This document shows positions 9,976 to 39,896 of a stretch of DNA of 40,309 nt, one piece after another. Numbering within the stretch: the stretch's first letter is position 1; each line of letters opens with the position of its first letter. The DNA comes from a virus. The translations under genes were made by a program, and so were the position numbers. The notes under the pieces are model-generated. The model searched no databases, had not been told where the DNA came from, and worked only from the letters and a program-made list of their open reading frames with translations. The stretch spans positions 1 through 40,309 of the IMG/VR virus record IMGVR_UViG_3300046167_000346; one strand, written 5' to 3'.

Positions 9976-10206
9976 TCACTTTACTTGAGTTATATAAACG
10001 CCATCATGGGCATCTAATGATGCCATTAGGTCTAATACTTGTTTGTAGTTGATGGCAATTAGTTGGAACTCGTTAAGTTCATCAGAGAACTGTCTAATGA
10101 AACATGTGCCATCATCTTCAAGATACATTTCTACATCTTCAAATTTACCATCGGCATCTATAGATACAACCTTAACATAGTCTGACTCTATTTCGACTGT
10201 GAACAT
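9976..10206 (-). CDS. small hypothetical protein (76 aa)
   Basis: 76 aa, acidic, beta-rich (MFTVEIESDYVKVVSIDADG, then DDGTCFIRQFSDELNEFQL). It is the last gene of the leftward block; its start overlaps the end of the zinc-ribbon gene. The family is not recognised. Confidence 0.5.
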   Translation of the reverse strand: MFTVEIESDYVKVVSIDADGKFEDVEMYLEDDGTCFIRQFSDELNEFQLIAINYKQVLDLMASLDAHDGVYITQVK

Positions 10207-10382
10207 GAGAAATACTTATCCCCCTGCTCAATTGGTATTTCTACTGTCATCCTTCGCATCCCACACTGAGGGCATTGTCGTTGCCTTCTTTTACTTGGGT
10301 AGCCGTATTTGAAGTGGGGGATGGTCTCGATTACTTTAGTCTTCACCATGCACTTTGGACAATGGGTTACACTATCTTTCAT
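10188..10382 (-). CDS. zinc-ribbon protein (64 aa)
   Basis: 64 aa, starting MKDSVTHCPKC. Two CxxC pairs (CPKC and CPQC) separated by about 28 residues make a zinc ribbon, with many Lys/Arg between. Such small phage zinc ribbons often bind nucleic acid or RNA polymerase. The ATG at 10382 is preferred over an upstream in-frame ATG at 10529, because the longer version would overlap most of the neighbouring gene in another frame. Confidence 0.55.
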   Translation of the reverse strand: MKDSVTHCPKCMVKTKVIETIPHFKYGYPSKRRQRQCPQCGMRRMTVEIPIEQGDKYFSCSQSK

Positions 10383-10578
10383 CACTGCTCTCTTTCCTTG
10401 CCCAAGGTCTCTGGGCTTTCTGTCTGCCACCATTGGAACCACTAACCTGACGTGCTCTATGCCAGTCCCAGTTGTCTCCAAATGCGTAGCTGTTGATTCT
10501 GAATGTCTCACGCATCCTTTTGTTTTCAATATCTGCCACAGACTTGTGCTGTAGCAACAACAGTTCTTCTCTGTTCAT
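10372..10578 (-). CDS. small hypothetical basic protein (68 aa)
   Basis: 68 aa, beginning MNREELLLLQHKSVADIENK, with a basic C-terminus rich in Arg, Gln and Trp (NWDWHRARQVSGSNGGRQK). A Shine-Dalgarno-like AAGGAG precedes the ATG. Its end overlaps the start of the zinc-ribbon gene, suggesting coupled translation. Function unknown. Confidence 0.5.
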   Translation of the reverse strand: MNREELLLLQHKSVADIENKRMRETFRINSYAFGDNWDWHRARQVSGSNGGRQKAQRPWARKESSDER

Positions 10579-10598
10579 GTGCCTCTCCTTAGTTATTT

Positions 10599-12570
10599 TT
10601 AGATGTCTACAAGTTCACAAGTTCCGCCAGTGCAAGCTAATGTCTGTGAGCCTTTAGTTGTGTCTTCAGACTCGTAGTCTGACAGCCTAGACCAGTCGAT
10701 TGCATCAGGCATGGCAAACAGTGCGACTTCATACTGTTCTTCGATTGATGTCTTGATAAGGTGCTTGAGCATACGTGTGATCAAACCTTGGTAGAAAGCT
10801 GACACCAGACATCTCATCGAAGTGCTTGTAGACAAACGCACCTACTTCTGCCCATTCGTCATCTCCAACCGATACAGTCACTGATGGCTTATGGTCTGTG
10901 TAGTGTCTTTGGTACATTAGCCACATCTCCAGCTGTTCAATCGCTGTCATGTCGTGACGTGTGACTGAGCCTTCTGGTGACTTCATAGGAAAGCTAAAGA
11001 CAGTCGTAGTAGCTGGCTTCATGACACAAGGTTCTGATGGTATTCCTTGGTCTGCTAGGAAGTGTGTCAGTGGGTCTTTGTTGTCGCCACGGACTGTTCT
11101 GATGTAGTAGTCAGAGTGTCTCGCATGTATTCCCAGAACTTGATGATGTCAGCTGTGATACAGTGCCACTTGGTTTGACCGCAGTAATAGAAGCTGACCT
11201 GTTGATACCTAATTCATCTGCAAAGTAGTTGTTAGTTTCTCTAGCAACCCTACGCCATGTATCTAGCCTGTCCTCAAGTCCCTTCTTCTCTACCATTAGT
11301 CAGCGTACAGTCCATGATGCCTGTCATAGATACACCTAAGAGTGCCTCACGTTCTGTATTGTTTGTCCAACAGTCACGTAAGTACGGAAAGTGAGTTAAG
11401 GTTGCTTGGATTGTACCTAAGATAGTCGCAAGTCGTATCTTGTTCGAGATGTCAGCTTCAGTATCTGTAGCCCTAATGATAGCTTCTGTAAGATTGCAGA
11501 ACTGACCACCAGTGCCTACGATGCCTCTTGTCTTTGTTTCACCAGTCTCAGGGTCAGTATATTCCTCAAGCTGTTGTCCAAGTAACACTATCTCACTGCA
11601 AGGATTCGTGCCGAATTCCCACATGTGATCTCTAGTCCCATCGCGTTTAGCTTTGTCTCTAGCCGCCTGTCTATTGAAGATACCACGTTCACCAGAACCA
11701 GAGGCCGCTAATGACGCCCATTCGTTCATGAAGTCTACACCGCTGGGCTTGCTTTCGAAGGCCACAGAGTTATTAGCGAGTGCGTGGTGTGGGTTGTCGA
11801 TGTACCACTCGCCTGACTTAGCTGTTCTCATCTCGTCATCCGATAGATCACTTAGGCTGATCATCGCTGAACGTCTTACGCCACCTACCACAACAATCGA
11901 TCCGATCATACACATGATGCTGTGGACATCTAAAGAAGACAGTTTGCTACCCTGCTTTTTCTTGAAGGTGTCTATGGTGTGTTCAAACAGTTCTACCAAT
12001 GGTTCAGCACCAGATGCCCTGCCACCAAATGTCTCTAAACGTGCACCAGCTGGTCTAACATTAGATACATCCCATGTCGGTATGTTGCCGTGGTTGTATA
12101 GTTCTTCAATGAGTTCTCTATATGCCTTCGCCCAGCCTTCTTTACTGTCTTCTACAGTAATCCTGTAGTCACCAGCTGTTAGCGTAGGTACGTCTGGTAG
12201 GCTATCGACATACTTCTTTTCGACAGAGAAGCCGACACCTGTTCCACACAGTAGGATAAACAGGACTTCATCGAAGCATCTCATGTGATCTATAGGTGTA
12301 TAGGAGCAGTTGTATCCAGCTGTATTGTCTCTCGATAATGCCTTACCAGCTGTCATGAGTGCTCTCATAGATGGCATTACTTCTAGGTTTAATATTGCTT
12401 GCTCAATCTCATTAGCAATCTCACGGCTCACACGTGACTTCACCACGTTGTCCATGTATCGGCTGACAGTCTCAGTCCAGCTCTCTCGTCTTCCCTTCAT
12501 CTTCTATCCATCTGGCATAGCGGCTGGTGTGGATGAAGGCTTGGTAGTCAGTAGGCAGTAGGTTGTTCAT
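10599..12570 (-). CDS. nrdJ: class II (B12-dependent) ribonucleotide reductase, 4 frameshifts
   Basis: The product would be 655 aa and reduce ribonucleotides to deoxyribonucleotides for phage DNA synthesis using adenosylcobalamin. Visible motifs: CSYTPIDHMRCFDEVLFILL and CGTGVGFSVE, NPCSEIVL with FCNLTE (active-site Cys and Glu), AVKPSGTVSQL, the SGIHARHS block restored after correction, and the C-terminal CTGGTC pair. No class I radical partner gene is present. Four single-base insertions (near 12494, 11281, 11130, 10733) break the frame. Removing them gives 1968 bases, a multiple of three, and restores WIEDEGRRESW, TNGREEGLEDRL and SGIHARHSDYYIRTVR. The start overlaps the stop of the DUF3310 gene. 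Confidence 0.88.
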
Positions 12571-12803
12571 AGTGTTTCTTCTTTTTCTTCAATGAGTGAA
12601 ATGAGTCGATCCAAGTACCAGCGGCACTTCTTTAGGTCTTCGACGGGTTTTTTCTTGTAAGGCCATCGCCACAGGTACTTGAAAGCATTCTGCCAGAGGT
12701 ACGCATTGTGACCCCAGACCATTGCTCCATCAGACATCGCTTGCATTGCATCGATGCACTCGATTGAACCTGAGTTGTAATGAGGTGGCTTTGTTGACGA
12801 CAT
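12567..12803 (-). CDS. DUF3310 protein
   Basis: 78 aa. KPPHYNSGSIECIDAMQAM near the N-terminus and YLWRWPYKKKPVEDLKKCRW near the middle are the signature of the DUF3310 (SaV-like) family of phage proteins, often listed with nucleotide metabolism genes without proven activity. It lies directly between exonuclease and RNR, consistent with a role near DNA precursor supply. The stop overlaps the RNR start. Confidence 0.8.
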   Translation of the reverse strand: MSSTKPPHYNSGSIECIDAMQAMSDGAMVWGHNAYLWQNAFKYLWRWPYKKKPVEDLKKCRWYLDRLISLIEEKEETL

Positions 12804-13571
12804 CTATCTTAATGGTTTCCATAGTATGACCTCACCTTTCTCGTTGTCCCAATCCGTACAGCGCAGAATCCTAGCCATACGTGCTTGTGTCAGCGCATAG
12901 TCCGCTGATAGTTTTTCTTTTTGATATTGTTTGACGACAGCATCCCAAGTCGGATGGTTTCCGAGTATCTTCTCAGCTGTCTTAACGCCCACTTTTGGAC
13001 ATCCACCATAGCCATCGGTCATGTCACCCATGAGGGCTTGGATGAGGAAGTTCCTGTTGGCTTCCATGTCACTAATGACCAGCCGTTCATTGTCGTTTGG
13101 TCTGTATAGACGACATGGGATAGTCTTCATGTCCTTGTCATCAGACACAATGATTGCTTCGGTGTTTGGTAGAGAAGCCATGATGCCCATGACATCATCG
13201 GCCTCTAAGCAGTCCACCATGATGCTATCGTATTCTTCCATAGCCCACTCAACTAGGGCTTTGTATCCTACAGGCTTACGGAGTTTCTTACGTCCACCTT
13301 TGTAGGTCTCTAGTATGTCTTTACGGAAGTTCTTTTGACCAGAGATTGTGACTATCACATCTTCTACAACCAGTTCTTTCTTGAACTCATCGATCATAGA
13401 CGTGAATAGTTTCTTTGCCGCTTTAAGGTCAGTGGCAAGCGACCATACATCATCACCCCAGTCTATCTCATGTTCAACAGCAATAGCCGCCCTAAAGAGA
13501 TAGAGGTCGCCGTCAATGAGTAACGTGGGGGTGGTAAATGACTTCTTTAAGAGTTCTTGTGATTTCTGCAT
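12804..13571 (-). CDS. 5'-3' exonuclease, T7 gp6-like
   Basis: 255 aa. The N-terminus TLLIDGDLYLFRAA carries the first metal-binding Asp. VDCLEADDVMGIMA and IIVSDDKDMKTIP are the acidic clusters of the FEN/5'-exonuclease fold, and GCPKVGVKTAEKIL is the helix-hairpin-helix DNA-binding motif. In T7-like phages this enzyme degrades host DNA and removes primers. It is intact. It lies downstream of DNA polymerase with a 59-base overlap with the 13513-13890 gene. Confidence 0.9.
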   Translation of the reverse strand: MQKSQELLKKSFTTPTLLIDGDLYLFRAAIAVEHEIDWGDDVWSLATDLKAAKKLFTSMIDEFKKELVVEDVIVTISGQKNFRKDILETYKGGRKKLRKPVGYKALVEWAMEEYDSIMVDCLEADDVMGIMASLPNTEAIIVSDDKDMKTIPCRLYRPNDNERLVISDMEANRNFLIQALMGDMTDGYGGCPKVGVKTAEKILGNHPTWDAVVKQYQKEKLSADYALTQARMARILRCTDWDNEKGEVILWKPLR

Positions 13572-13890
13572 GTATATCCTGTCCGTCAGGGGTCACGTAC
13601 CAACGATTACCCCAGCTATCTTCATCTATTTGGTTAGTTATGAAGCCCTCACTTGCACCTATGGCAACGTGAAGTGCTCCTACTCTTGCGAAGTCTGATT
13701 TGACTGTGAATGGCTTACGCCACGCCCGATCAACGACTATGAAAAGAAGCAATAAGTTCTCTAAGTAATCGTTCTTCTCAGTGAGTGTCAGCCCAAGTTC
13801 TTCCCACGGAATATTCTGCTTCAGTGGCAATGTTAAGTCCGAGAGCAACGCCAGCTTCTTGTGCCATTGCTCCAGCGATATTTCCGACAT
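13513..13890 (-). CDS. conserved hypothetical protein (125 aa)
   Basis: 125 aa if translated from the only ATG, at 13890, which overlaps the polymerase end by 113 bases. The well-formed part starts near EKNDYLENLLLLFIVVDRAW and continues to GASEGFITNQIDEDSWGNRW; it may begin at a non-ATG codon near the polymerase stop (13778). ASEGFITNQ with GNRWYVTPDG looks like a small phage domain found between polymerase and exonuclease in T7-like marine phages. Function unknown. Confidence 0.55.
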   Translation of the reverse strand: MSEISLEQWHKKLALLSDLTLPLKQNIPWEELGLTLTEKNDYLENLLLLFIVVDRAWRKPFTVKSDFARVGALHVAIGASEGFITNQIDEDSWGNRWYVTPDGQDIHAEITRTLKEVIYHPHVTH

Positions 13891-15553
13891 CTTCGGCTAT
13901 CTCCTTTGTCTTACAGGCAACTTGGATTTCATCATGAATCCAGCCCATGATGTACGCATCGTCGCCATACTTTTCTTTGATTGTGTCGTAGGTCATCATG
14001 ACCCACTGTTTTGCTACGATTGCCCCAGCTGACTGTAGTAGCTGTGAGAGGCATCGGTGCTCCGACCTGACCCTTAGTTTGCGCCCATCGAGTGCCTTGA
14101 TGTGACCTCTCTTAGCCGCTGTCTTTAGGTTTCTCTTTAAGGTAGCAAACGCTGGTACGTTGTGGTCAAAGTTGTCTTTTAGCTTCTTACCTAACTTTGC
14201 ACCGCCGCCAGCTATTGATCCAATAAGCCTATCACCACCGCCGTAAAGCGTACTATAGAGCCAGCGTTTCGATAAATCTCTCGTAGCAAGACCTGTAGCT
14301 TTTTGGTTGTAGCTGTGGATGTCACCATCTACGACTATACTTGCATACTCACCTTCATCATAAGGATATAAGTATGAAGCCATGAGGCGTATTTCGATTC
14401 CCGAAAGATCAGAGCCGCATATGACCCATCCCTCTGGTGCTGTGAACAACTCACGACACTCTTTGCCATAAGGCGAGCCAGCACTAGGTACTTGCTGTAG
14501 ATTTGGGGATGTCGCTGTTGCTCGGCTTGAAACACAGTTGTTGCTATTCAGCCTGTGTCTCAGTTTACCATCAGGACTGACCTTCTTGAGCCATGCCCCA
14601 GCACCTTCAGCCAACATGCCAATCCTCTTCTGTATTAAGAAGAACTCAGCAAGCCTCTTAGCCTCTGGATACGGAAGACTAGCCAAGATGGTTTCGTCAA
14701 TCTTAGCTTGACCATTAGGAGTAAACTCTTTTGGCTTCCACTTGTACTTGTCCACAAGACACTTCTGAATGTGCACCCTCGACGCTGGGTTAAAGTAGAT
14801 TGTCTTTGATTTGACAAACAGTTCACCTTTGACATACCCACGAGTCCTTATTGTTGACTTTAGGATAGAAGTCTTCAGTAACTTCCCAAGGTGGAAACAG
14901 TTCCTTTAAGTCTTCCTCGATGACATGGCGTTTCTGTGCAAGTTCAGCATAGAGTTCACCAGCTTTCTTCTCATCAAATGTCCAGCCGTTACTACCGATC
15001 TCACGGCAGATAGATGCCATACGATGCTCAAGGTCGATAGACTTCTGAGTAGGCTCAGTCTTCATCAACTTCTTGTATAAGCGTGTCAGTCACCTTGAGT
15101 ATCTTGGACACAGTATGACATCATCGTTTCACTGTAGGCTTCCCACCCACCATCGTAGTCATCCTTGAAGTCACCAAGGCGAAGACCCCAAGCCTTTAGG
15201 CTGTGGCTTCCCCAGAGTTTCTTTGGAAACTTAGCGACACTGAAGTTGCGTTCAGCATCCTCATTGAAGAGGTCTCCATGTATAAGGCGAGAGAGAACTA
15301 AAGTGTCAGTTACCTTGGCCTTAGTTGTCCACTCTGGATATACAATCTGTATCGCTGGGATGTCGTAGTCGATAATGTTGTGACCTATGATCTCATCAGC
15401 ATTTGCTAGTAGCTCAAGTGCGTCCTTCGATCTGGTCTGGGTTAAACTTACGGACTTCGCCAGTGTCCACCTCACGGCAGACAATGCACCAGATAGTGTG
15501 GATGGTATCTAAGAGGCCGTTGCTCTCTAAGTCCCACAAATCCACCGACTCAT
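13778..15553 (-). CDS. DNA polymerase, T7-like family A, 5 indels
   Basis: A family A polymerase of about 590 aa with a 3'-5' proofreading domain. Exonuclease motifs: WDLESNGLLDT, ADEIIGHNIIDYDIP, SYCVQDTQ. Polymerase motifs: SRATATSPNLQQVPS, CGSDLSGIEIRLMASYL (motif A), the O-helix region RDLSKRWLYSTLYGGG, and WIHDEIQVAC (motif C). The end GRTWADTH is like T7 polymerase. Insertions near 15424, 15093, 15075 and 14846 and one missing base near 15535 break the frame; correcting all leaves a multiple of three. The ATG at 15553 overlaps the MazG stop as ATGA. A GTG at about 15543 in the polymerase frame is an alternative start that avoids the first indel. Confidence 0.88.
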
Positions 15554-15912
15554 CGCTTGTCACCAGAACCCTTCAAGACACCACGCTTCTGTCGTGACTG
15601 TAGCTTCTCATTGTTAATTTCGGCGACCTCATTTAAGGCTATACCGAGGTCTTTTGAGAGTGCCGCAATATACCAGAGTACATCTCCTAGCTCATCTGCA
15701 ATCTCTGCTCTCTTCTGCGCTGGGATTGTATTTAGACCATCAAAAGTTACATCGTGATCTCTAATGAGTTTCTTAATCTTACCAAGGACTTCACCAGCCT
15801 CGTTAGCTAGACCTAATGCTGGGTAGATGACCTTCCATTTGTAAATCATGGTTTTAGCCGCATCTGCTTGATATTGGTTCATTGTGTATTCATGTGTGCC
15901 TGTAGTTTTCAT
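15550..15912 (-). CDS. mazG: MazG-like nucleotide pyrophosphohydrolase
   Basis: 120 aa. The metal-binding pattern of the MazG fold is visible: GLANEAGEVLGKIKK in helix one and AEIADELGDVLWYIAAL in helix two (EE..E and E..D type). Phage MazG proteins hydrolyse NTPs or alarmones such as ppGpp and are common in marine phages, possibly prolonging host metabolism. The start at 15912 overlaps the stop of the winged-helix gene; upstream in-frame codons fall inside that gene. Confidence 0.85.
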   Translation of the reverse strand: MKTTGTHEYTMNQYQADAAKTMIYKWKVIYPALGLANEAGEVLGKIKKLIRDHDVTFDGLNTIPAQKRAEIADELGDVLWYIAALSKDLGIALNEVAEINNEKLQSRQKRGVLKGSGDKR

Positions 15913-16202
15913 CTGAATAGCTCCCCTTGTGCATTGAGTTGTCTTGTTGCTTTGAAGATTTGCTGATTGCGTCCATACGGACTTTTGCGCTTCCCTATGA
16001 CTGTGATCAGCCCAGCGTCTTTCAGCCATTTAAAGTGGTTGGTGATTGAGCCATACGGCATGTGCTTGAGTGCCAGCTGTACCTGTGCACTGATGCAACC
16101 TTTGTCGCCAGCGGCTTGAATGACATCAAAGACCATCCTTGTGTTCTTTGTTAAATCTGTGTTTGCATACGCCTCGCGAGACGTGCTCGATAAACCACGC
16201 AT
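15909..16202 (-). CDS. winged-helix DNA-binding protein
   Basis: 97 aa. NTRMVFDVIQAAGDKGCISA followed by MPYGSITNHFKWLKDAGLI reads as helix-turn-helix plus wing, as in small winged-helix regulators. It is the only obvious regulator-like protein in the early block and could be a transcription switch, perhaps linked to lysogeny control given the integrase, but no direct evidence supports that. The stop overlaps the MazG start. Confidence 0.6.
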   Translation of the reverse strand: MRGLSSTSREAYANTDLTKNTRMVFDVIQAAGDKGCISAQVQLALKHMPYGSITNHFKWLKDAGLITVIGKRKSPYGRNQQIFKATRQLNAQGELFR

Positions 16203-16245
16203 ACGTGTTCCTTTGCTTTACTAATGTTTTATGTTGGGGGAGTTT

Positions 16246-17834
16246 TTAGAAACCGAAGTTACTGTCAGTGGCAGTAAGTCTGCCAGTGTCGCGGTTGTAC
16301 TGAAGTTCATCCGCTTGGCCTACAAATCCTGTATGCCTATTCTTGAGTACGACAAGTTCTCGCTTGCCTGATGTTGGGTCTTCGCTGTCCACATTCATAG
16401 CAATACAAGCAGTCGCCAGCTGTGCTAGACTGTGGCTTCCTCTCAGCTGTGACAGCTGTGCTCTATCGCCGCCTTCGTGACCCCTTTCGGAGTTTGGTCT
16501 CTTCAAGTGTGACACAAGGATTAACGCTAAGTCCAACTCAGTACATAGGACTGTCAGAGTGTGCATGATGTGATCTATTAGAACTCTCTCGTTGTCACTT
16601 GCACCAGCATATGAGCTAACAAGAATACTAATGTGATCTAAGAAGACGACATCACACCCAAGCCATGTTTCATGTACCTTATACGATTACAAATGGTGTC
16701 TATGTCAAATGACCCAAAGTGATCAAAGAGGTAGATTTGACCATGAGACAGTAAGTCGTCAAAGCCTGTCTTTATCTCCTCTGGTGTAGCCGCATCCTCG
16801 TCAATCACAATGTTTCTATTGATGTGGAGACCTACGAGACCTTGGGCTGTACGCTTAGTGCTTTCTTCTAGCATCAACATGCCAACCCGTGTTCCTGTCA
16901 TGTGTAAGTTGTAAGCAATCTCACGGATTAATGTAGACTTACCTGTGCCACTTCCAGCCACTATAGTCACAATTCCCTGACGTATACCTTTGAGCATGTT
17001 GTTTACCCTTGGGTATGGGTACTTCATTGGGCTCTCAGCGTCTGGAGTTGCTACAGTCTCTCTCATGTCAGACATCTGGACTATGCCATCAGGTCTATAG
17101 TCAGCCGCCTGATGTATAGCATTAATGATTGCTCCAGCCTCACCTTTTACAAGACACTCATTAGCATCCTTGTGTGGCAAGACAGCAATCTTAACTTTGC
17201 CTATGGGCAAGACTTCAGCACACTCAATGGCGGCCTTACGTCCAGCTTCATCCTGATCAAACATTAAGACTATCTCTTTAAAGTTGTTGAGGTAATCTAT
17301 GTTCTCCAACAGGTTCTTCTTAGCCCCAGCACTGCCGTTTCTAACAGGACACAGTAGCAAACCTATGCTGTTGTATCTGTGACACGCTCATGCAATCTAT
17401 TCGCCTTCTGTAATCACCAGCTTCTTACCAGCCGACCAAAGGTGCATACCAAAGAGACCAGTGATCTTCCCAAGTGTAGGAAACTGCTTGTCTCTGGTGC
17501 GTATCTTCTGACCTGTAGTCTTACCTTTAGCATCCTTATAGTTAGCCACCTGTATCGGCTCGCCTTTGCTGTCTTTAGTCACAAAGTAACCAAACTTACG
17601 ACACGTCTGCTCAGTCAACTTGCGTGACCTAAGTTCCATGTAGTCGCCTGATAGTAGTCTACTGTCTGTCTTGGTTGGCGTTGCGCTGGGCGTGTACTGT
17701 CCGTCAGCTGGGGTGTGCTTCAAACAGCTGAAGCAAAACATATGCCCATCGCTGTAGAGGCTGTTGGCATCTGATGACCCACAGGCATCACATGGTTCGT
17801 GAGACACAAAAGTGCTCTCTTCTTGTTCATTCAT
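16246..17834 (-). CDS. primase-helicase, T7 gp4-like, 3 indels
   Basis: About 529 aa after correction. Zinc-binding domain: CDACGSSDANSLY then CFSCLKHTP. TOPRIM primase core: VITEGEIDC (restored) and VLMFDQDEAGRKAA. Helicase: Walker A GSGTGKSTLIREIAY, Walker B VVFLDHIS (restored) and SHLKRP. It unwinds DNA and makes primers at the fork. One missing base near 17400, one extra near 17343 and one missing near 16656 break the frame; net correction gives 1590 bases. The C-terminus ends in FGF, which could contact the polymerase as T7 gp4's tail does. Confidence 0.88.
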
Positions 17835-17852
17835 TTGTTACTTCCCTATAAT

Positions 17853-17880
17853 AAAAAAGGGCGATCCTAAGACCGCCCTT
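17853..17880 (-). terminator. rho-independent terminator
   Basis: On the minus strand AAGGGCG (17880-17874) pairs with CGCCCTT (17863-17857), then a T-run follows. It separates endonuclease I (ends 17890) from the helicase start (17834) and may adjust transcript levels between the two parts of the block. Confidence 0.8.
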
Positions 17881-17889
17881 GTGCTCTCT

Positions 17890-18333
17890 TTATTTGGCTT
17901 GTTTCATGCCTAGATGGCATTCCTCAATCCACTCATCTGGTATTCGCTTGTGTGCCCATGCGAACCCATTCTTGATGCAAAAGTCAGCATATGAAGTCTT
18001 AGACCCCTTATACAATTTCGCATTTGCATTCTGAAATAAGAAACGTAGATCAAGGTCTGGTAGTTGCTTCTTGATCAACACATGTTTCTGTCGATCAGCA
18101 GTCACCCAGCGTCCTTTGGTTTCTAAGAACCATACACCACCAGCCTTCGGGAGAATGAAGTCTGGAGTGTACTTGGCAGTCCGCGCTGGGATGAGGTAAG
18201 ACAGCCTCTCAGTTTCGTAGGTAAACGGAATACCTAGTCTCCTAAGTTCTTCTGCTACCCCAACCTCAAGACCTGACCTATAGCCTTCCTTGATACCTCT
18301 GTATCTATGGTTAGAAGTCAAAGTTATCTGCAT
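17890..18333 (-). CDS. endonuclease I (Holliday junction resolvase), T7 gp3-like
   Basis: 147 aa from the ATG at 18333; an in-frame ATG at 18357 would add eight residues overlapping SSB. The PD-(D/E)xK core is clear: GYRSGLEVGVAEEL (Glu), YTPDFILP (Asp) and WFLETKGRW (ExK). T7 endonuclease I is a dimer that resolves branched DNA and helps degrade host DNA; the length is close to the 149 aa of the T7 protein. I favour 18333 because an AGGG lies just upstream. Confidence 0.88.
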   Translation of the reverse strand: MQITLTSNHRYRGIKEGYRSGLEVGVAEELRRLGIPFTYETERLSYLIPARTAKYTPDFILPKAGGVWFLETKGRWVTADRQKHVLIKKQLPDLDLRFLFQNANAKLYKGSKTSYADFCIKNGFAWAHKRIPDEWIEECHLGMKQAK

Positions 18334-18853
18334 TCCCTGTAGGAGCAAATGGTTCATCGATTGCTGATGTATCTACAGTGAAACCACCTTCCTCGATTGC
18401 TCCAAAGCCTGTACCGTTCATACCTTGGATTGCTTCGACAATCTGGACAGCTTGTAGTGTGATAGACACCCCACATTGTCCGCTGACCTTATAGACATTT
18501 AGGAAGCCTTTTAGTCTTAGACGACTGCCACCACCGATCTGTGGTAAGGCATTGGTTGGCACTTTTTGACCAGCTGTGTCATAGAACTCTGGCATATACT
18601 TAGACTGTAGCTTAAAAGCCACTTCCCCAGTTTCTTCATCTGTCATATAGGGTACTCTGTAATGAGACTTCCCATGTTCTTCTTTAGCCGCGTCCTCAAT
18701 GATCTTTATTAAGGGCTTTGCGTCTTCCTGAGACAACAATAGTTCTGACTTATATTTACCTTCGCTATCGAAAGCTGTGTCAGGTTTCAAGAGGTGGGGG
18801 TACTTAGCCACTCCTGTAGGAGTCTGGAAGTTTATCTTTTGTTTCTTAGCCAT
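18311..18853 (-). CDS. single-stranded DNA-binding protein, T7 gp2.5-like
   Basis: 180 aa, beginning MAKKQKINFQTPTGVAKYPHL. The middle has an OB-fold style (SRLRLKGFLNVYKVSGQCGVSITLQAVQIV), and the C-terminus is acidic and ends in Phe (NADNFDF), like the T7 gp2.5 tail that binds polymerase and helicase. Its gene follows RNA polymerase after a gap with two hairpins, and its end overlaps endonuclease I. Confidence 0.85.
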   Translation of the reverse strand: MAKKQKINFQTPTGVAKYPHLLKPDTAFDSEGKYKSELLLSQEDAKPLIKIIEDAAKEEHGKSHYRVPYMTDEETGEVAFKLQSKYMPEFYDTAGQKVPTNALPQIGGGSRLRLKGFLNVYKVSGQCGVSITLQAVQIVEAIQGMNGTGFGAIEEGGFTVDTSAIDEPFAPTGNADNFDF

Positions 18854-18872
18854 TCTTTTGTCTTTCTAATGT

Positions 18873-18906
18873 AAAAGGCCACCTATAGATTCTATAGATG
18901 GCCTTT
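18873..18906 (-). terminator. hairpin before SSB gene
   Basis: A 15-base stem (18874-18888 with 18892-18906, 14 of 15 paired) has a 3-base loop and, on the minus strand, ends in a short T-run. It lies 20 bases before the SSB start and could end RNA polymerase transcripts or serve as a processing site. Confidence 0.6.
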
Positions 18907-18920
18907 AGTTTGGGAGGAGA

Positions 18921-18968
18921 AGAAGTCCCTAGAGTCTTAAGATGAGGGAGGGAACTCTAGGGGCTTCT
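18921..18968 (-). terminator. second hairpin after RNA polymerase gene
   Basis: A 15-bp stem (18921-18935 with 18954-18968, one U-G pair in plus-sense RNA or A-C mismatch in minus-sense RNA) encloses an 18-base purine-rich loop. There is no clear T-run. With the hairpin at 18873-18906 it makes a tandem structure right after the RNA polymerase stop. Confidence 0.45.
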
Positions 18969-18985
18969 TAAGGGTGACAAAAGTA

Positions 18986-21572
18986 TTAGCTAAAGCAAAA
19001 CTGGCTGTCCCTTATCCCATGTAAGTCTAGGTTTCCCATTTGTGGTATTGGGTCTACTTCAGACTTCTCAAAGTCATAAGGATGGTCTAGCTGTTGCCTG
19101 AGTTCCTCTTGCCACTTCAGCAACAGGTTTTCGGCTTCATACATCTCAATGTGGGCTTCACGCACCCCATGATATAGGTCGTCTACATCTCCTGAGATTG
19201 CAAAGCTGTCGTGGATCATAAAGAAGTCATTGGTCGCCCCAGCGTCTAAGAGTTTGACTATGGTTTTAGCCATGCCAGAGGCGTCTAAAGAGTGTATCAG
19301 GTTAGCCGCTACGCTGGCTGTATTCTTCCTCACATCCACCTTACCAGTATCCAGCGACAAGGATACCTTAGACCTCGTTCTTTGGCCTACTGCTGAGTCA
19401 AACAGAATATCTTAGTCTCCACCCTGTCCCTCTTTAAGTAGTTATGGAAGACCCTAAACCCACTAGGTGAAGTCCAATTAACCAACTTGTTTTGCTTGCT
19501 GAGAACATTGGTGCACGACTGTATCCACTTCATTGCTTCAGCCGCCTTTGGTAAGGTCTCCACAATGCTGTCATAGCAATGTTCAGCAAGGTATCTAGCC
19601 GCCACCTTTCGCTCTTTGTTAGTCCTAGCAATCGGATGAAACTCAATGTCTCCATAGCTCACGTCACGCTGTAGCGGTTTCATTACGTCTTCCATGAATT
19701 GACCAGTCATACCAGCCGCAACAGACTGAATATGCGAAAACCATTGATGGTCTCTTACACAGCTTCCTGTCCACACCATAGTCCAACCAAATACGCGCTA
19801 GTTCGGCCTTTGTGATAGGGGTTCTTTCTGAAGTCACTACTGTCACTTAGATCAGTCTTCAGTCTCGTTTGTACCTTGTCAGCTACAGTCTGATAAAGGT
19901 CAGCCATTTCAGCCTGTGGGACTAGGTTTACAAGTTTACCCTCGTCTTCCCCAAGGGTTAACATTGAGTAATGCTGAACGCCACTATTAGTCCCATCAAG
20001 TGAAATTGGTATGAAGCCAACGAAGTCGTCTCCTTCCTCAAGGTATCTGGAATATTCGAAGATAGCGGCTAGCATCTGAAAAGGAGAGTCTGCACCTGAC
20101 CATTGACCCAAGACTGTTCTTATAGTCTTTTGCCATGTCCTAGTAGCACACCCTCATTCTTATCGAACCAAGCCACACGTTCATCAAGAGGTGCTTTGTC
20201 GATCTTCTCAAAGCCACTACAGTTAGCAATGTGTATTTTCAGCCATTTGATGTTTTGCCCATCGACTACACGTCCCTCTCTGGAACTGAAAGAGTGACTT
20301 GATGTGATCGTCACGATGGTAGTTAAAAGACGGAACCATGTTGAAGCGACCACGGAAGTCACAAGCCCAAGGGATCGTGAACCAATCGTGCACTGCCAGT
20401 TCATTAGCAATCTGTAAGTCTTGCTTCATGACAGCTTCAGCACCCTTGACCCTGCGGTCAGTGTTTCTCCATTCACGTTGGTCTTCTTTGATGGCTTTCT
20501 TTAGCTCCTGATCCATTGTCATATGGTCTTCGGGAAGCCTTGGAAACTCAGGTGTATCTCTCTTTGGAAACTTACCGAATGACTGCCGTGTCTCCCAGCA
20601 CCATTCGACAACTTCCAACATCTCTTCGTTGATACATAGCCTAGTTTCTTGCAGTGCATTGAGTGCTCTAAAGTGCTCTGGAGTTTCACCCTTGAAACTG
20701 TGTTCTATGGCCTCAATCTGCTTCGCTGATGCCCCTCTGACTAGCTTCACGCACTCTGCTAGTCTCCAGTCCTTGTAAGCCCCTGTATGGAAGCCCTGCC
20801 AAGGGTTCGGAGTGTCCATTGGAATAGGCTTTAGTAGCGGCTGTGACCATTGGAGATACTCTTTGCTTCTCTCAATCTGGCGCATGGCCTCATCTGTAAA
20901 TGAAAGGCGAGTGATACTGTTTTTTGGGGTGGTGTACTGCGTGTCCTTTTGGAACACATGACAATACTGAAAGATAGCTGACAAGACTGGGGCGGCGTTG
21001 GATGTCCTTCGCTTCATGTGCATCTTTCGATCACCCTTTTTCTCTTCGATGCCAAAGTAGACTGACTTAGTGCCATTCTTAGTGGCTATGTTCCTGAGTG
21101 CCTTCAGTCTGATGTGTGCTGATGTGTGGGCTTCAGACACCATCTTAACTATACGCCTGTTGTTCTTGTTGGCTTCCTCATCGTCGCTATGTAGCAACTC
21201 CAACGCTAGACATTCACGATCTATAAGACTTCCGATTTCTTGGGTTACACTACTGAGCGTACTGTCTTTGAGGACTGCGTTATAGCAAGTCTGAAGGCCA
21301 ATGAGTGCCAGTTGTCGTGGGTCTAGGTGCATGAGGTCATTGAGCCACGTCGGGCGGCGTCCTTTGCCTCTTCTAGCTTCCTCGATGTCTTTGGATAAAC
21401 CATCAGCCACTAAGTCTAGGACTTGCTTTAGTTGGCTGTATTCTGGTGCTTGCTCGGTTACGTTTTCTGCCTGTTGATACTTCTCGTTAAACTTACGTCT
21501 GCCATCTTGTTTCATGGTCTCGTTGTAGGCTTCTGAGATAGGGTTGGCCTGTGTATTGCTCTCGTTGCTCAT
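18986..21572 (-). CDS. T7-like single-subunit RNA polymerase, 6 indels
   Basis: About 860 aa after correction, close to T7 RNAP (883 aa). Motifs: PWACDFRGRFNMVPSFNYHR (catalytic Asp region), SLDGTNSGVQHYSML (second DG block), RKLCKRPSMVFAYS (catalytic Lys helix), SLDASGMAKTIVKL and FFMIHDSFA (HDSF), and the end GNLDLHGIRDSQFCFS like T7's terminal Phe-Ala. It would transcribe phage genes from its own promoters. Insertions near 20275, 20129, 20108, 19807 and 19720 and a deletion near 19408 break the second half; correction leaves 2583 bases. The first 430 codons are intact. Confidence 0.9.
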
Positions 21573-21694
21573 GTTTTGGCTCCCCCTTCTTTGTTGGTTG
21601 CTACAGGTGGGGCAGTCTCTGGATTACACCAGCTAGACAATCGGATACCGAAGAAGCCTTGTTGGCTATTATTCTCGCTTAATTTGTTGTTCAT
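21569..21694 (-). CDS. very small protein upstream of RNA polymerase (41 aa)
   Basis: 41 aa: MNNKLSENNSQQGFFGIRLS, then a short Cys/Pro segment ending EGGAKT. The stop overlaps the RNA polymerase ATG as ATGA, and a GGGAAGTAA site precedes the start, so it may be a leader peptide coupling polymerase translation. No family recognised. Confidence 0.45.
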   Translation of the reverse strand: MNNKLSENNSQQGFFGIRLSSWCNPETAPPVATNKEGGAKT

Positions 21695-21712
21695 CTTACT
21701 TTACTTCCCTTT

Positions 21713-22611
21713 TTATATTTCCAGTCCAAACAGGTCAGTCTGTTTAGCTTGTGGTTTTGTAATAGTTTTGCTTTTCGCTCCTCTCATTAGTTCTGCCATA
21801 GACCGAAGGGTCTCTGGTTGGCTCTTTATATATTTACGAGTCGTTGAAACGTCTCTATGGCCTAAGTACAGAGCCACCAGTCGAGTCATTAAATTCACCA
21901 CTGTTTGCCAGTGTAGTTGCACAAGTATGTCTGGTCGTGTGGAAGGTGTAACGGCTGTCGTCGTTAAGGACTGCCCTTCTCATGTGCTTCCACCCACGAT
22001 AAAACAACTTGCTGTTCCAGTTCTTAGAGACATCAGTTCCTAGTTTCCTGATGGCTCTTAGGGCTTGATCATTGATGGGTACTGTGCGGCTGTCGCCGTT
22101 CTTGGTGTCAGCTAAGTAGACTGAATAACCACCAGTTGCATCAATAATTAATGTGCGTTCGTTTATGCTCCTTATCTCACCAATACGCATTCCTGTTTGA
22201 ATGCCAATGATCAAATAAAACTCTAGGTCTTTGAATTCAGCACTGTTCCGAAAGTACGACGACATTAAATCAATTTGAGACTTTGTAAAGTAGAGAGGTC
22301 GCTTGTTGCCTTTGACCTTCCTGTACTTGAACTTGGGTACATGAGTTATAAGTTCCTCATTCGTTGCCCAGCTGAATACCTTTACTAGCATAGCCCCATA
22401 GTGATTAATGGTATTATTAGGACAGCCCCTGTTCCTCAAGACTATCAAAGAACCTGTGAATATGGCTCGGCTTAAAGTCGCCTATGTCCCTAGTGCCATA
22501 ATCAGAGAAACTTGAGAATCGTTCAGCTTTTGTAATGCTTCTGGCTCGGTGGGCTTCAGTGCCATCCCAGATTAGCTTAGAGTCGCTGTAGACTAACTCA
22601 AGAAAGGTCAT
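21713..22611 (-). CDS. int: tyrosine-type integrase, 2 frameshifts
   Basis: 298 aa after correction. Catalytic residues visible: Arg in IQTGMRIGEIRSI, HxxR in FHTTRHTCATTL, His in LGHRDVSTT and nucleophile Tyr in TRKYIKSQ. The N-terminal SAM-like core-binding domain precedes. It would integrate the phage genome at a host attachment site. Extra bases near 22427 and 21881 break the frame; removing them restores EEQGCPNNTINHYG and FNDSLVALYLGHRD and gives 897 bases. The ATG follows a strong AAGGAG, itself part of a region duplicated 200 bases upstream. Confidence 0.85.
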
Positions 22612-22627
22612 TGGACTGTCTCCTTTC
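22591..22627. repeat. duplicated start region, copy 1
   Basis: This segment contains the integrase ribosome site, ATG and first codons. It repeats at 22800-22830: both share GACTAACTCA and CATTGGACTGTCTCCTTTC (plus-strand reading), with a 6-base difference between the two blocks. Confidence 0.8.
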
Positions 22628-22814
22628 CATACCAGTAGAGATGTAAGATCGTTAAGTTAAAAAGACATATTGTTGTAATCCTTGTGTGGTTCCATCGGTC
22701 AGGTGTCACAGGTGTGTTGTCAGTATCGAAGAAAACCCTCTTCTTACCTTTTCTGCTGAAATAAAAAACACTAAGAGAATGCTTTTTGTTTCTTAGTTTG
22801 ACTAACTCAACCAT
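22608..22814 (-). CDS. small ORF preceding integrase (68 aa)
   Basis: 68 aa from the ATG at 22814, beginning MVELVKLRNKKHSLSVFYFS, basic. It lies between the two copies of the duplicated start region and shares ribosome site and first codons with integrase (MVELV versus MTFLELV). It ends overlapping the integrase ATG. It may be a displaced integrase N-terminus, an inserted segment or a real small gene; the second half (TTICLFNLTILHLYWYGK) looks less protein-like, so another indel is possible. Confidence 0.4.
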   Translation of the reverse strand: MVELVKLRNKKHSLSVFYFSRKGKKRVFFDTDNTPVTPDRWNHTRITTICLFNLTILHLYWYGKETVQ

Positions 22815-22830
22815 TGGACTGTCTCCTTTC
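22800..22830. repeat. duplicated start region, copy 2
   Basis: Second copy of the element at 22591-22627, about 205 bases away in direct orientation. It carries the ribosome site and start of the 68-aa ORF. Confidence 0.8.
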
Positions 22831-23022
22831 TTGCTCACGTACTGCCATGTCTATTGCTCCAGCCTTGGCTTGCTCTAGTTCCTGTGGTGTCAGATTGCTT
22901 GCCATTGCTTGCGCCAGTGTTGCGGCGGCCTGTGCTCGGTCTATTGATCTGGCTGTTAGGCTTCGGAACAAGGCGACTTGCATGGCTTCTATTGTTGTCT
23001 CTGGGGTGTAGGTGGTAATCAT
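22807..23022 (-). CDS. small hypothetical helical protein (71 aa)
   Basis: 71 aa, Ala/Gln/Glu-rich and helical (MITTYTPETTIEAMQVALFR, then AQAAATLAQAMASNLTPQEL). It shares ATGA overlaps with the gene before and an overlap with the ORF after, so it belongs to the tightly packed early string. No family recognised. Confidence 0.55.
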   Translation of the reverse strand: MITTYTPETTIEAMQVALFRSLTARSIDRAQAAATLAQAMASNLTPQELEQAKAGAIDMAVREQERRQSNG

Positions 23023-38768: not shown

Positions 38769-39896
38769 ATGAGTACATACACAACCTATAACCAAGTTGG
38801 AAAAAAGGAAGATGTTTCAGACATCATTTCCAACATTTCACCATTTTCTACGCCCATGCAAGCGATGATCAAGAACGAAAAAGTATCAGCTAGAACTTTC
38901 TCATTCCTTGAAGATTCATTAGCAGACTCAGCTGTAAACGCTGTAGTCGAGGGTGCAGACGCATCAATGGCAACATTGACAGACGCAACTGAGCGTACAA
39001 ACAACACTCAGATCATGTCTAAAGCCTTTCAAGTATCAGCAACAGCTGATGCAGTAGCTACATATGGTAGAGCAAAGGAAACTGCACACCAATTAGCTAA
39101 GAAATTGAAGGAAATTAAGAAGGACTATGAACGTGCAATGGTTGGCGTAGAGCAAGCCGCAGTTGCTGGTAATGCTTCAACAGCACGTAAGATGACTTCT
39201 TTGTTAAACCAAATCTCTACAGCTGTAGACGCTGGTTCAAACGCAACAGATGCTTTAACAGAAGCAAAACTATTACTAGCTGGTCAAACAGCATACGACA
39301 ATGGTTCTGATGTTGACACATTTATGATTAAGCCAGCAGATGCACAAATCGTAGCTGGTTTCTCAGCGGCATCTGGTCGTAATCGTGAAATCGCACAAGG
39401 CAAAACATTGGTCAATGCGATTGATCTGTACGTTGACGTGACTAGCGTACATTAAATCTTGTGAATTCAGTGGAAGCCTAAGTCGAAAGATAAGGTAATA
39501 CTGAGCCAAGCCCCACTATGGGGAAGGTGCAACGACTATCCCGACAGGGAGTACACTCAAGTGAGTGGAAGCGCAAGAAACTACAATCCGTAGTTGTGAT
39601 ATAGTCTCATCTAATGTGAAAGCATTAGCAGTCGAAAGGCGGTCTAAGATTAACGAACTTAGGCGAAGATGCCATGTAGTCCATATGGCGAATACAGAGT
39701 AGTATTAAACCGCGAGTTAAAGACAACTCACGCACTACTCATAGACCCAACAATGTTTAAAACATGTACGTTGCGTCCATTCACAAGAACACTACTAGCG
39801 AAGAATGGTGACTCAGATCGTCATCACATCGTTGGTGAGGTTTCTTGTAAGCACACAAACTTTGGTGACTCAGTGAAAATCACTGGCTTATCATAA
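38769..39896 (+). CDS. major capsid protein, split by group I intron
   Basis: Spliced coding parts are 38769-39452 and 39672-39896 (302 aa). Exon 1 (TTYNQVGKKEDVSDIISNIS, STPMQAMIKNEKVSARTFSF, IAQGKTLVNAIDLYVDV) and exon 2 (PYGEYRVVLNRELKTTHALL, IDPTMFKTCTLRPFTRTLL) together read as one DUF5309-type capsid protein with an HK97-like fold. Unspliced, translation stops at the TAA that opens the intron and would lack the last 75 residues. Both exon ends fall on codon boundaries. A terminator follows at 39925. Confidence 0.82.
39453..39671 (+). ncRNA. group I intron, td-like, without ORF
   Basis: 219 nt. The 5' splice follows U39452; CAU pairs with GUG at 39461-39463 (U-G at the site) around an 8-base loop, as in T4 td. 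P7 is GACTA (39534-39538) with TAGTC (39602-39606); P8 is AACTAC/GTAGTT (39579-39595). Further hairpins: CCCC/GGGG (39511-39523), CACTC/GAGTG (39554-39567), CTAATG/CATTAG (39611-39628) and CTAAG/CTTAG (39644-39662) with the td-like AAGATTAACGA loop. The 3' end is G39671. It begins with UAA in frame, as td does. Stem names follow td by analogy. Confidence 0.88.

What the first reader, a model, noticed from the sequence alone, without database searches (positions are those of the whole stretch)
39453..39671. ORF-less group I intron splits the major capsid gene
Two capsid fragments are separated by 219 nt whose order of conserved blocks (AACGACTATCCC, GATATAGTC, AAGATTAACGA) and hairpins parallels the T4 td intron. 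The 5' exon ends in U in a UAA-opened intron with the same 8-base P1 loop, and exons join in frame without residue loss. Introns in phages are usually in nucleotide-metabolism or polymerase genes; placing one in the most highly expressed late gene could make capsid output depend on splicing. No homing endonuclease is inside, so its spread needs another source or an old loss.
Basis: partly seen in the sequence, partly recalled or inferred. Interest (0 to 1): 0.85.

Follow-up and report, generated by a model that had tools for sequence, protein, structure and literature searches.

The report
Mobile self-splicing intron in capsid gene
An uncultured phage carries a 243-base RNA that should cut itself out of the message for its main shell protein, and relatives of this intron turn up again and again in that same gene across many phages, with up to four in one gene and no recognised DNA-cutting enzyme to spread them.

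Summary
The intron is 39434-39676 (243 nt). P1 (UGUACGU/GCGUACA, closing U-G), P10 (GACUA/UAGUC) and 80 uninterrupted relatives fix the junction. P10 covaries between intron and exon 2 in 32 of 32 cases.

Eight other contigs carry the identical 243 nt at the same codon although their exons differ by up to 14%; the 30-nt flanks are identical, as in co-conversion. On the capsid tree, presence changes at least 15 times. Related ORF-less introns occupy at least six sites in SU10-type capsid genes; L164 has four in one gene. No homing endonuclease was recognised in the window or in 52 other intron-bearing records.

Capsid-gene introns are known (mycobacteriophage LittleE), so this is a new member of a known kind. 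The hot spot, the four-intron gene and spread without a visible endonuclease are the unusual parts. Splicing is inferred; no RNA was tested.

The parts
38769..39433 (+). Exon 1 of the SU10-type major capsid gene (codons 1-221 plus two bases of codon 222)
   Evidence: 80 uninterrupted relatives; PF17236 248.6 bits for the spliced protein
39434..39676 (+). Group I intron, 243 nt, no ORF; ends in G39676
   Evidence: RF00028 84.1 bits; boundaries from empty sites, P1/P10 and P10 covariation; identical in 8 other contigs
39677..39896 (+). Exon 2 of the major capsid gene (last base of codon 222 to stop)
39427..39451 (+). P1: exon UGUACGU 39427-39433 pairs with guide GCGUACA 39445-39451, U39433-G39445 wobble at the 5' splice site, 11-nt loop
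   Evidence: Sequence; 30/30 intron-bearing alleles read TGTACGT against 5/80 intronless; duplex -7.6 kcal/mol against -2.1 to -5.8 for the four commonest intronless alleles
39440..39444 (+). P10 5' strand GACUA, pairs with exon 2 UAGUC 39677-39681
   Evidence: Covaries with exon 2 in 32/32 site-B introns with the motif: GACTA/TAGTC 12, GGCTA/TAGCC 20, no mismatched combination
39453..39455 (+). In-frame TAA that ends translation of unspliced message after residue 228
39457..39578 (+). P3: 39457-39463 with 39572-39578, 7 bp
   Evidence: 95% of cells paired, 69 double-change cells in 34 introns
39467..39504 (+). P4 39467-39471/39500-39504 enclosing P5 39477-39479/39493-39495
   Evidence: 100% and 96% of cells paired
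39505..39528 (+). P6 39505-39507/39526-39528 and P6a 39511-39514/39520-39523
   Evidence: 99% and 95% paired; P6a 50 double-change cells
39534..39606 (+). P7 (guanosine-binding helix) 39534-39538/39602-39606
   Evidence: Invariant, 100% paired
39539..39567 (+). P7.1 39539-39542/39547-39550 and P7.2 39554-39558/39563-39567
   Evidence: 99% and 96% paired; P7.2 65 double-change cells
39580..39594 (+). P8 39580-39584/39590-39594
   Evidence: 85% paired, 28 double-change cells
39611..39662 (+). P9 39611-39616/39623-39628, P9.1 39631-39633/39638-39640, P9.2 39644-39648/39658-39662
   Evidence: 100%, 76% and 82% paired; 61, 13 and 69 double-change cells

Best explanation
Window 39434-39676 is a 243-nt ORF-less group I intron, with the P7.1/P7.2 arrangement of subgroup IA2, inside the gene for an SU10-type major capsid protein. 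In the late transcript, exon 1 pairs with the guide (P1), guanosine bound in P7 attacks after U39433, and the freed exon attacks after G39676 with P10 holding exon 2. The product is a 294-codon message (splicing inferred from structure and empty sites, not observed). The intron is mobile at population level: it spreads to intronless capsid alleles in co-infected cells by recombination that also copies about 30 nt of exon on each side, including the synonymous changes that make P1 and P10 pair (shared intron and flanks shown by sequence; recombination inferred). With no endonuclease found in cis, the most likely trigger is a trans-acting one from a co-infecting phage or the host, or one of an unrecognised kind; ordinary homologous recombination is the main alternative.
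For: RF00028 above cut-off. Helices P3-P9.2: 94% of cells paired and 385 double-change cells against a shuffle mean of 118 (maximum 150); slid controls 32-42%. Eighty uninterrupted relatives give the exact junction. P10 covariation between intron and exon in 32/32. Identical 243 nt in nine contigs whose exons differ by up to 77/550 nt, with 30/30-nt flanks shared on both sides. At least 15 changes of presence on the capsid tree, 13 forced by supported branches. Introns group by insertion site: 11 changes against 20.2 shuffled.
Against: No RNA evidence of splicing. No endonuclease found with four Pfam models in the window genome, so the trigger for spread is unknown. Shared flanks could partly reflect selection on P1/P10 rather than co-conversion. 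Most records are metagenome fragments, and recombination within the gene can distort the tree. Some phage introns do not self-splice in vitro although they splice in infected cells (PMC11878797).
Confidence: 0.85

Rival explanations
1. The intron is exactly, 39453-39671, joining to a 302-aa capsid.
For: Exon end in U, intron end in G, in-frame join; the 302-aa product still matches SU10_MCP at 234.3 bits.
Against: Inserts DVTSVHPC, absent from all 80 intronless relatives; leaves only a short, mismatched P1 overlapping P3, which starts at 39457; P10 covariation places exon 2 at 39677.
Confidence: 0.02
2. The intron is an old, vertically inherited resident that was lost many times; its identity across phages reflects strong constraint.
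For: Group I cores are constrained; loss by recombination with intronless alleles is plausible; counts of changes cannot tell gain from loss.
Against: 0/243 differences, loops included, while nearby exons differ by up to 14%; other introns at the same site differ from it by 12-20%, so the sequence is free to vary; shared 30-nt flanks.
Confidence: 0.07
3. Spread needs no endonuclease: the intron hitch-hikes on ordinary homologous recombination between co-infecting relatives.
For: The gene is mosaic: in L103 residues 1-116 are 81% identical to the window, the stretch after site A 95%, and exon 2 100%. No endonuclease above cut-off in 53 intron-bearing records tested for HNH_3, GIY-YIG and HNH.
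Against: Flank identity falls within about 60 nt in the diverged carriers, which looks like short-patch repair at a break rather than long tracts; the same codon is occupied in capsids only about 30% identical (L153, L139, L105).
Confidence: 0.35
4. Reverse splicing into RNA, reverse transcription and recombination moved introns between sites within the capsid gene.
For: Site A and site B introns are 83.7% identical in one gene; about seven insertion positions in the gene, each with a short guide.
Against: No direct evidence; it does not explain the shared exon flanks at one site.
Confidence: 0.15

Closest known systems
LittleE (Cluster J mycobacteriophage) major capsid intron, PMC3706429
   Same: Group I-type intron in a phage major capsid gene; exon ends in U, intron ends in G; splicing shown by RT-PCR and N-terminal protein sequence.
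   Different: 819 bp with a LAGLIDADG-like ORF in an HK97-type capsid; here 243 nt, no ORF, SU10-type capsid, with an intron-exon P10 covariation series.
Phage C72C1 (OQ984150.1) capsid gene
   Same: Related intron (80.0% identity over 90% of the query) in an SU10-type capsid gene annotated as two 'major head protein' pieces.
   Different: Inserted at site A (codon 107 of the window protein), not site B (codon 222); the record does not annotate an intron.
T4 td intron (IA2)
   Same: IA2-type layout with P7.1/P7.2 in a phage protein gene (td from general knowledge; not aligned here).
   Different: td carries the I-TevI gene and sits in thymidylate synthase; this intron has no ORF and a different P1.
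Phage Twort orf142, three group I introns (Landthaler and Shub 1999, cited in PMC11878797)
   Same: Several group I introns in one structural gene.
   Different: Three introns there; L164 here has four in one capsid gene.
Collaborative homing of ORF-less phage introns by free-standing endonucleases (reviewed in PMC3984707)
   Same: ORF-less group I intron spreading site-specifically.
   Different: No free-standing endonuclease found here.

Membership tests
Group I introns (RF00028) | Covariance model score above the curated cut-off | tested here: met
   84.1 bits against 50
Group I introns (RF00028) | P3-P9 core with compensatory base changes | tested here: met
   385 double-change cells against shuffle mean 118, maximum 150; 94% of cells paired
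Group I introns (RF00028) | U-G wobble pair at the 5' splice site in P1 | tested here: met
   U39433-G39445; exon TGTACGT in 30/30 intron-bearing alleles
Group I introns (RF00028) | Intron ends in G; P10 pairs guide region with exon 2 | tested here: met
   G39676; P10 covaries in 32/32
Group I introns (RF00028) | Empty site equals the exon junction in relatives | tested here: met
   80 intronless relatives
Group I introns (RF00028) | Guanosine-dependent splicing | not testable with these tools
   Needs RNA
Subgroup IA2 | P7.1 and P7.2 between the P7 5' strand and the P3 3' strand | tested here: met
   Both helices present, P7.2 covarying; no subgroup-specific model was run
Homing (mobile) group I introns | Encodes a homing endonuclease in the intron | tested here: not met
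   No ORF; all site-B introns recovered are 241-278 nt
Homing (mobile) group I introns | Free-standing homing endonuclease in the same genome | tested here: not met
   No HNH_3, GIY-YIG, HNH or LAGLIDADG_3 match in G000; other nuclease types not tested
Homing (mobile) group I introns | Spread to intronless alleles with exon co-conversion | tested here: met
   Identical intron and 30-nt flanks in diverged genes; patchy presence. Comparative evidence only, no cross
SU10-type major capsid protein (PF17236) | Profile match over the whole spliced protein | tested here: met
   Residues 5-293 to profile 3-291 of 292, 248.6 bits

The most novel reading that the evidence does not exclude
SU10-type capsid genes of uncultured phages are a natural intron hot spot: at least six insertion sites, up to four ORF-less group I introns in one gene, all spreading without any endonuclease of their own by a mobility route not yet described (a nuclease from host or co-infecting phage aimed at the capsid gene, or endonuclease-free transfer).
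Probability: 0.3. Interest if true: 0.7.

Novelty: new member of a known kind. Interest (0 to 1): 0.52.

Why it matters
Recent papers still ask why phage introns colonise only genes of nucleotide and DNA metabolism (PMC11878797) and call that preference mysterious (PMC12350094). Here capsid genes are the commonest host of this intron type in a sample of uncultured phages, so the preference may partly reflect which phages have been cultured. The series of identical and diverged introns at one codon, with intron-exon covariation and 80 empty sites, is a ready comparative set for testing how ORF-less introns move. It also warns that major capsid genes of environmental phages may be annotated as broken or as two proteins, as in C72C1.

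Tried and rejected
Translated insertion or broken gene: rejected because the insert has stops and 80 relatives lack it. An endonuclease in or near the intron: four Pfam families searched in the window and eight identical-intron records, three of them in 44 further intron-bearing records; only a sub-threshold GIY-YIG fragment in L206's record (17.3 bits). Introns elsewhere in the window: only one RF00028 hit. Introns or HNH_3 in 50 intronless relatives: none. Host: no relative in genome contigs, no tRNA in the window, best terminase match in cultured phages 39.6%, portal about 31%. Plasmids: only weak matches. In one search, identities upstream of site A for L103 and L142 are out of register because of their second intron and were not used. 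Two genome-search runs and two paper calls failed on input limits. The output was too large to use and was replaced by representatives.

Full report
What is there. The window is an IMG/VR virus record of 40,309 bases. Its ends are contiguous in a relative (L149), so it looks like a complete, circularly joined phage genome with terminase, portal, capsid and adaptor genes, an endonuclease I (PF05367) and a tyrosine integrase. Rfam finds one group I intron in it: RF00028 at 39404-39628, 84.1 bits against a cut-off of 50. The gene it interrupts is an SU10-type major capsid protein, PF17236, 248.6 bits for the correctly spliced 294-aa product.

Boundaries. Pairing of P3 (39457-39463 with 39572-39578) leaves no room for P1 downstream of 39453. 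The sequence instead offers a perfect 7-bp P1, exon UGUACGU (39427-39433) with guide GCGUACA (39445-39451), ending in the expected U-G, and a 5-bp P10, GACUA (39440-39444) with exon 2 UAGUC (39677-39681). This gives an intron of 39434-39676, 243 nt. Three tests agree. (ii) At the same codon, 32 introns carry the motif GNCTAGCGTACA: 12 with GACTA have exon 2 TAGTC and 20 with GGCTA have exon 2 TAGCC, with no mismatched case. This is covariation between intron and exon, and it fixes the 3' splice site. (iii) All 30 intron-bearing alleles in the tree read TGTACGT before the intron, against 5 of 80 intronless ones, and the four commonest intronless alleles pair more weakly with the guide.

Structure. 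On 34 distinct related introns the helices P3, P4, P5, P6, P6a, P7, P7.1, P7.2, P8, P9, P9.1 and P9.2 are paired in 94% of cells, with 385 double-change cells against a shuffle mean of 118 (maximum 150 in 500); partners slid by 1-3 columns pair in 32-42%. Shuffles do not remove relatedness, and the structure was written from one of the sequences, but the number of compensatory changes is far above both controls' reach. The region folds 3.95 SD below shuffles. The intron has no ORF, and an in-frame TAA at 39453-39455 ends translation of unspliced message.

Relatives and movement. A 28-base core pattern found 81 IMG/VR loci. Eight of them carry the identical 243 nt at the same codon, in capsid genes whose nearby exons differ from the window by up to 77 of 550 nt; the 30 nt on each side are identical in every pair. 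Two further patterns returned the same eight. A looser pattern brought 47 new contigs, 40 of them with SU10-type capsid matches, and a last pattern on the 5' end returned 30 contigs, all already in hand. On a tree of 110 capsid genes built without the 45 nt on either side of the site, intron presence needs at least 15 changes, 13 forced by well-supported branches. Gain and loss cannot be told apart by that count; identical introns in diverged genes with shared flanks argue for recent transfer. Introns group by insertion site (11 changes against 20.2 shuffled), as site-specific homing predicts.

A hot spot. Introns occupy several positions in SU10-type capsid genes: codons 19, 51, 107, 116, 222 (this one) and 225 in window numbering, plus a site a few codons upstream of 222 in a distant group (positions outside 222 and L164 are approximate). 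L103 and L142 carry two introns in the gene. L164 carries four, each above the Rfam cut-off; cut after a U and before the base following a G, and with short guides ending in U-G (read by hand), all four join to a 257-residue protein that aligns without a gap to the window protein up to the contig end, and L188 holds three of the same introns. Three distant capsids about 30% identical (L153, L139, L105) have an intron at the same codon as the window. Of the 81 core-pattern loci, 42 lie in capsid genes: 22 SU10-type, and 20 assigned by blastp clusters whose representatives match PHROGs 1357, 371, 334 and 283. This sample was drawn with a motif from this intron, so it is not an unbiased census.

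How it moves. No HNH_3, GIY-YIG, HNH or LAGLIDADG_3 match exists in the window or the eight identical-intron records, and none above cut-off in 44 more intron-bearing records for the first three, several of them 36-41 kb long. Related introns in other genes in the sample do hold HNH-like frames, read by eye only. The likeliest account is break-induced copying with a trans-acting or unrecognised nuclease; plain homologous recombination is a serious rival. These steps are inference.

Comparison. Introns in phage capsid genes are known: LittleE's 819-bp intron was shown to splice (PMC3706429), and the same paper cites lactococcal Tuc2009. Literature searches found no report of this SU10 capsid series; the library is open-access only. 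Two 2025 papers treat the confinement of phage group I introns to nucleotide and DNA metabolism genes as an open question (PMC11878797, PMC12350094), to which these data speak. The single intron is therefore a new member of a known kind; the hot spot, the four-intron gene and the missing endonuclease are the parts worth following.

Noticed in passing
L164 3325-4977 (reverse-complement coordinates), also L188: One capsid gene with four group I introns of 261, 261, 260 and 254 nt at codons 19, 51, 116 and 225; the third has a divergent core.
   Followed up: partly
L103 3782-5151 and L142 628-1997: Two introns in one capsid gene; the first (site A, 242 nt) is identical between the two contigs and 83.7% identical to the second.
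   Followed up: yes
L163 2666-3867 (Phage C72C1, OQ984150.1): GenBank annotates the capsid as two separate major head proteins with small reverse-strand ORFs between; a group I intron explains the split.
   Followed up: yes
window 10100-22850, - strand: RNA polymerase, DNA polymerase, ribonucleotide reductase, primase/helicase and integrase genes appear broken into overlapping ORFs, as by frameshifts (assembly error or decay), while the late genes at 25-38 kb look intact.
   Followed up: no
window 1 and 40309: The two ends are contiguous in L149, with a small gene starting just after the junction: the record is probably a complete genome cut at an arbitrary point.
   Followed up: yes
L107 2233 and 4100: Two IA2-type introns on a contig with a tail sheath gene (PHROG 165) beside one of them.
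   Followed up: no
L092, L123: Introns beside capsid genes of the PHROG 371 type with HNH-like reading frames next to or in the intron: possible full-length mobile relatives.
   Followed up: no
L206 record (L211), 22487-22606: Sub-threshold GIY-YIG fragment (17.3 bits) in a 131-aa frame, in the record of a site-B intron bearer.
   Followed up: no
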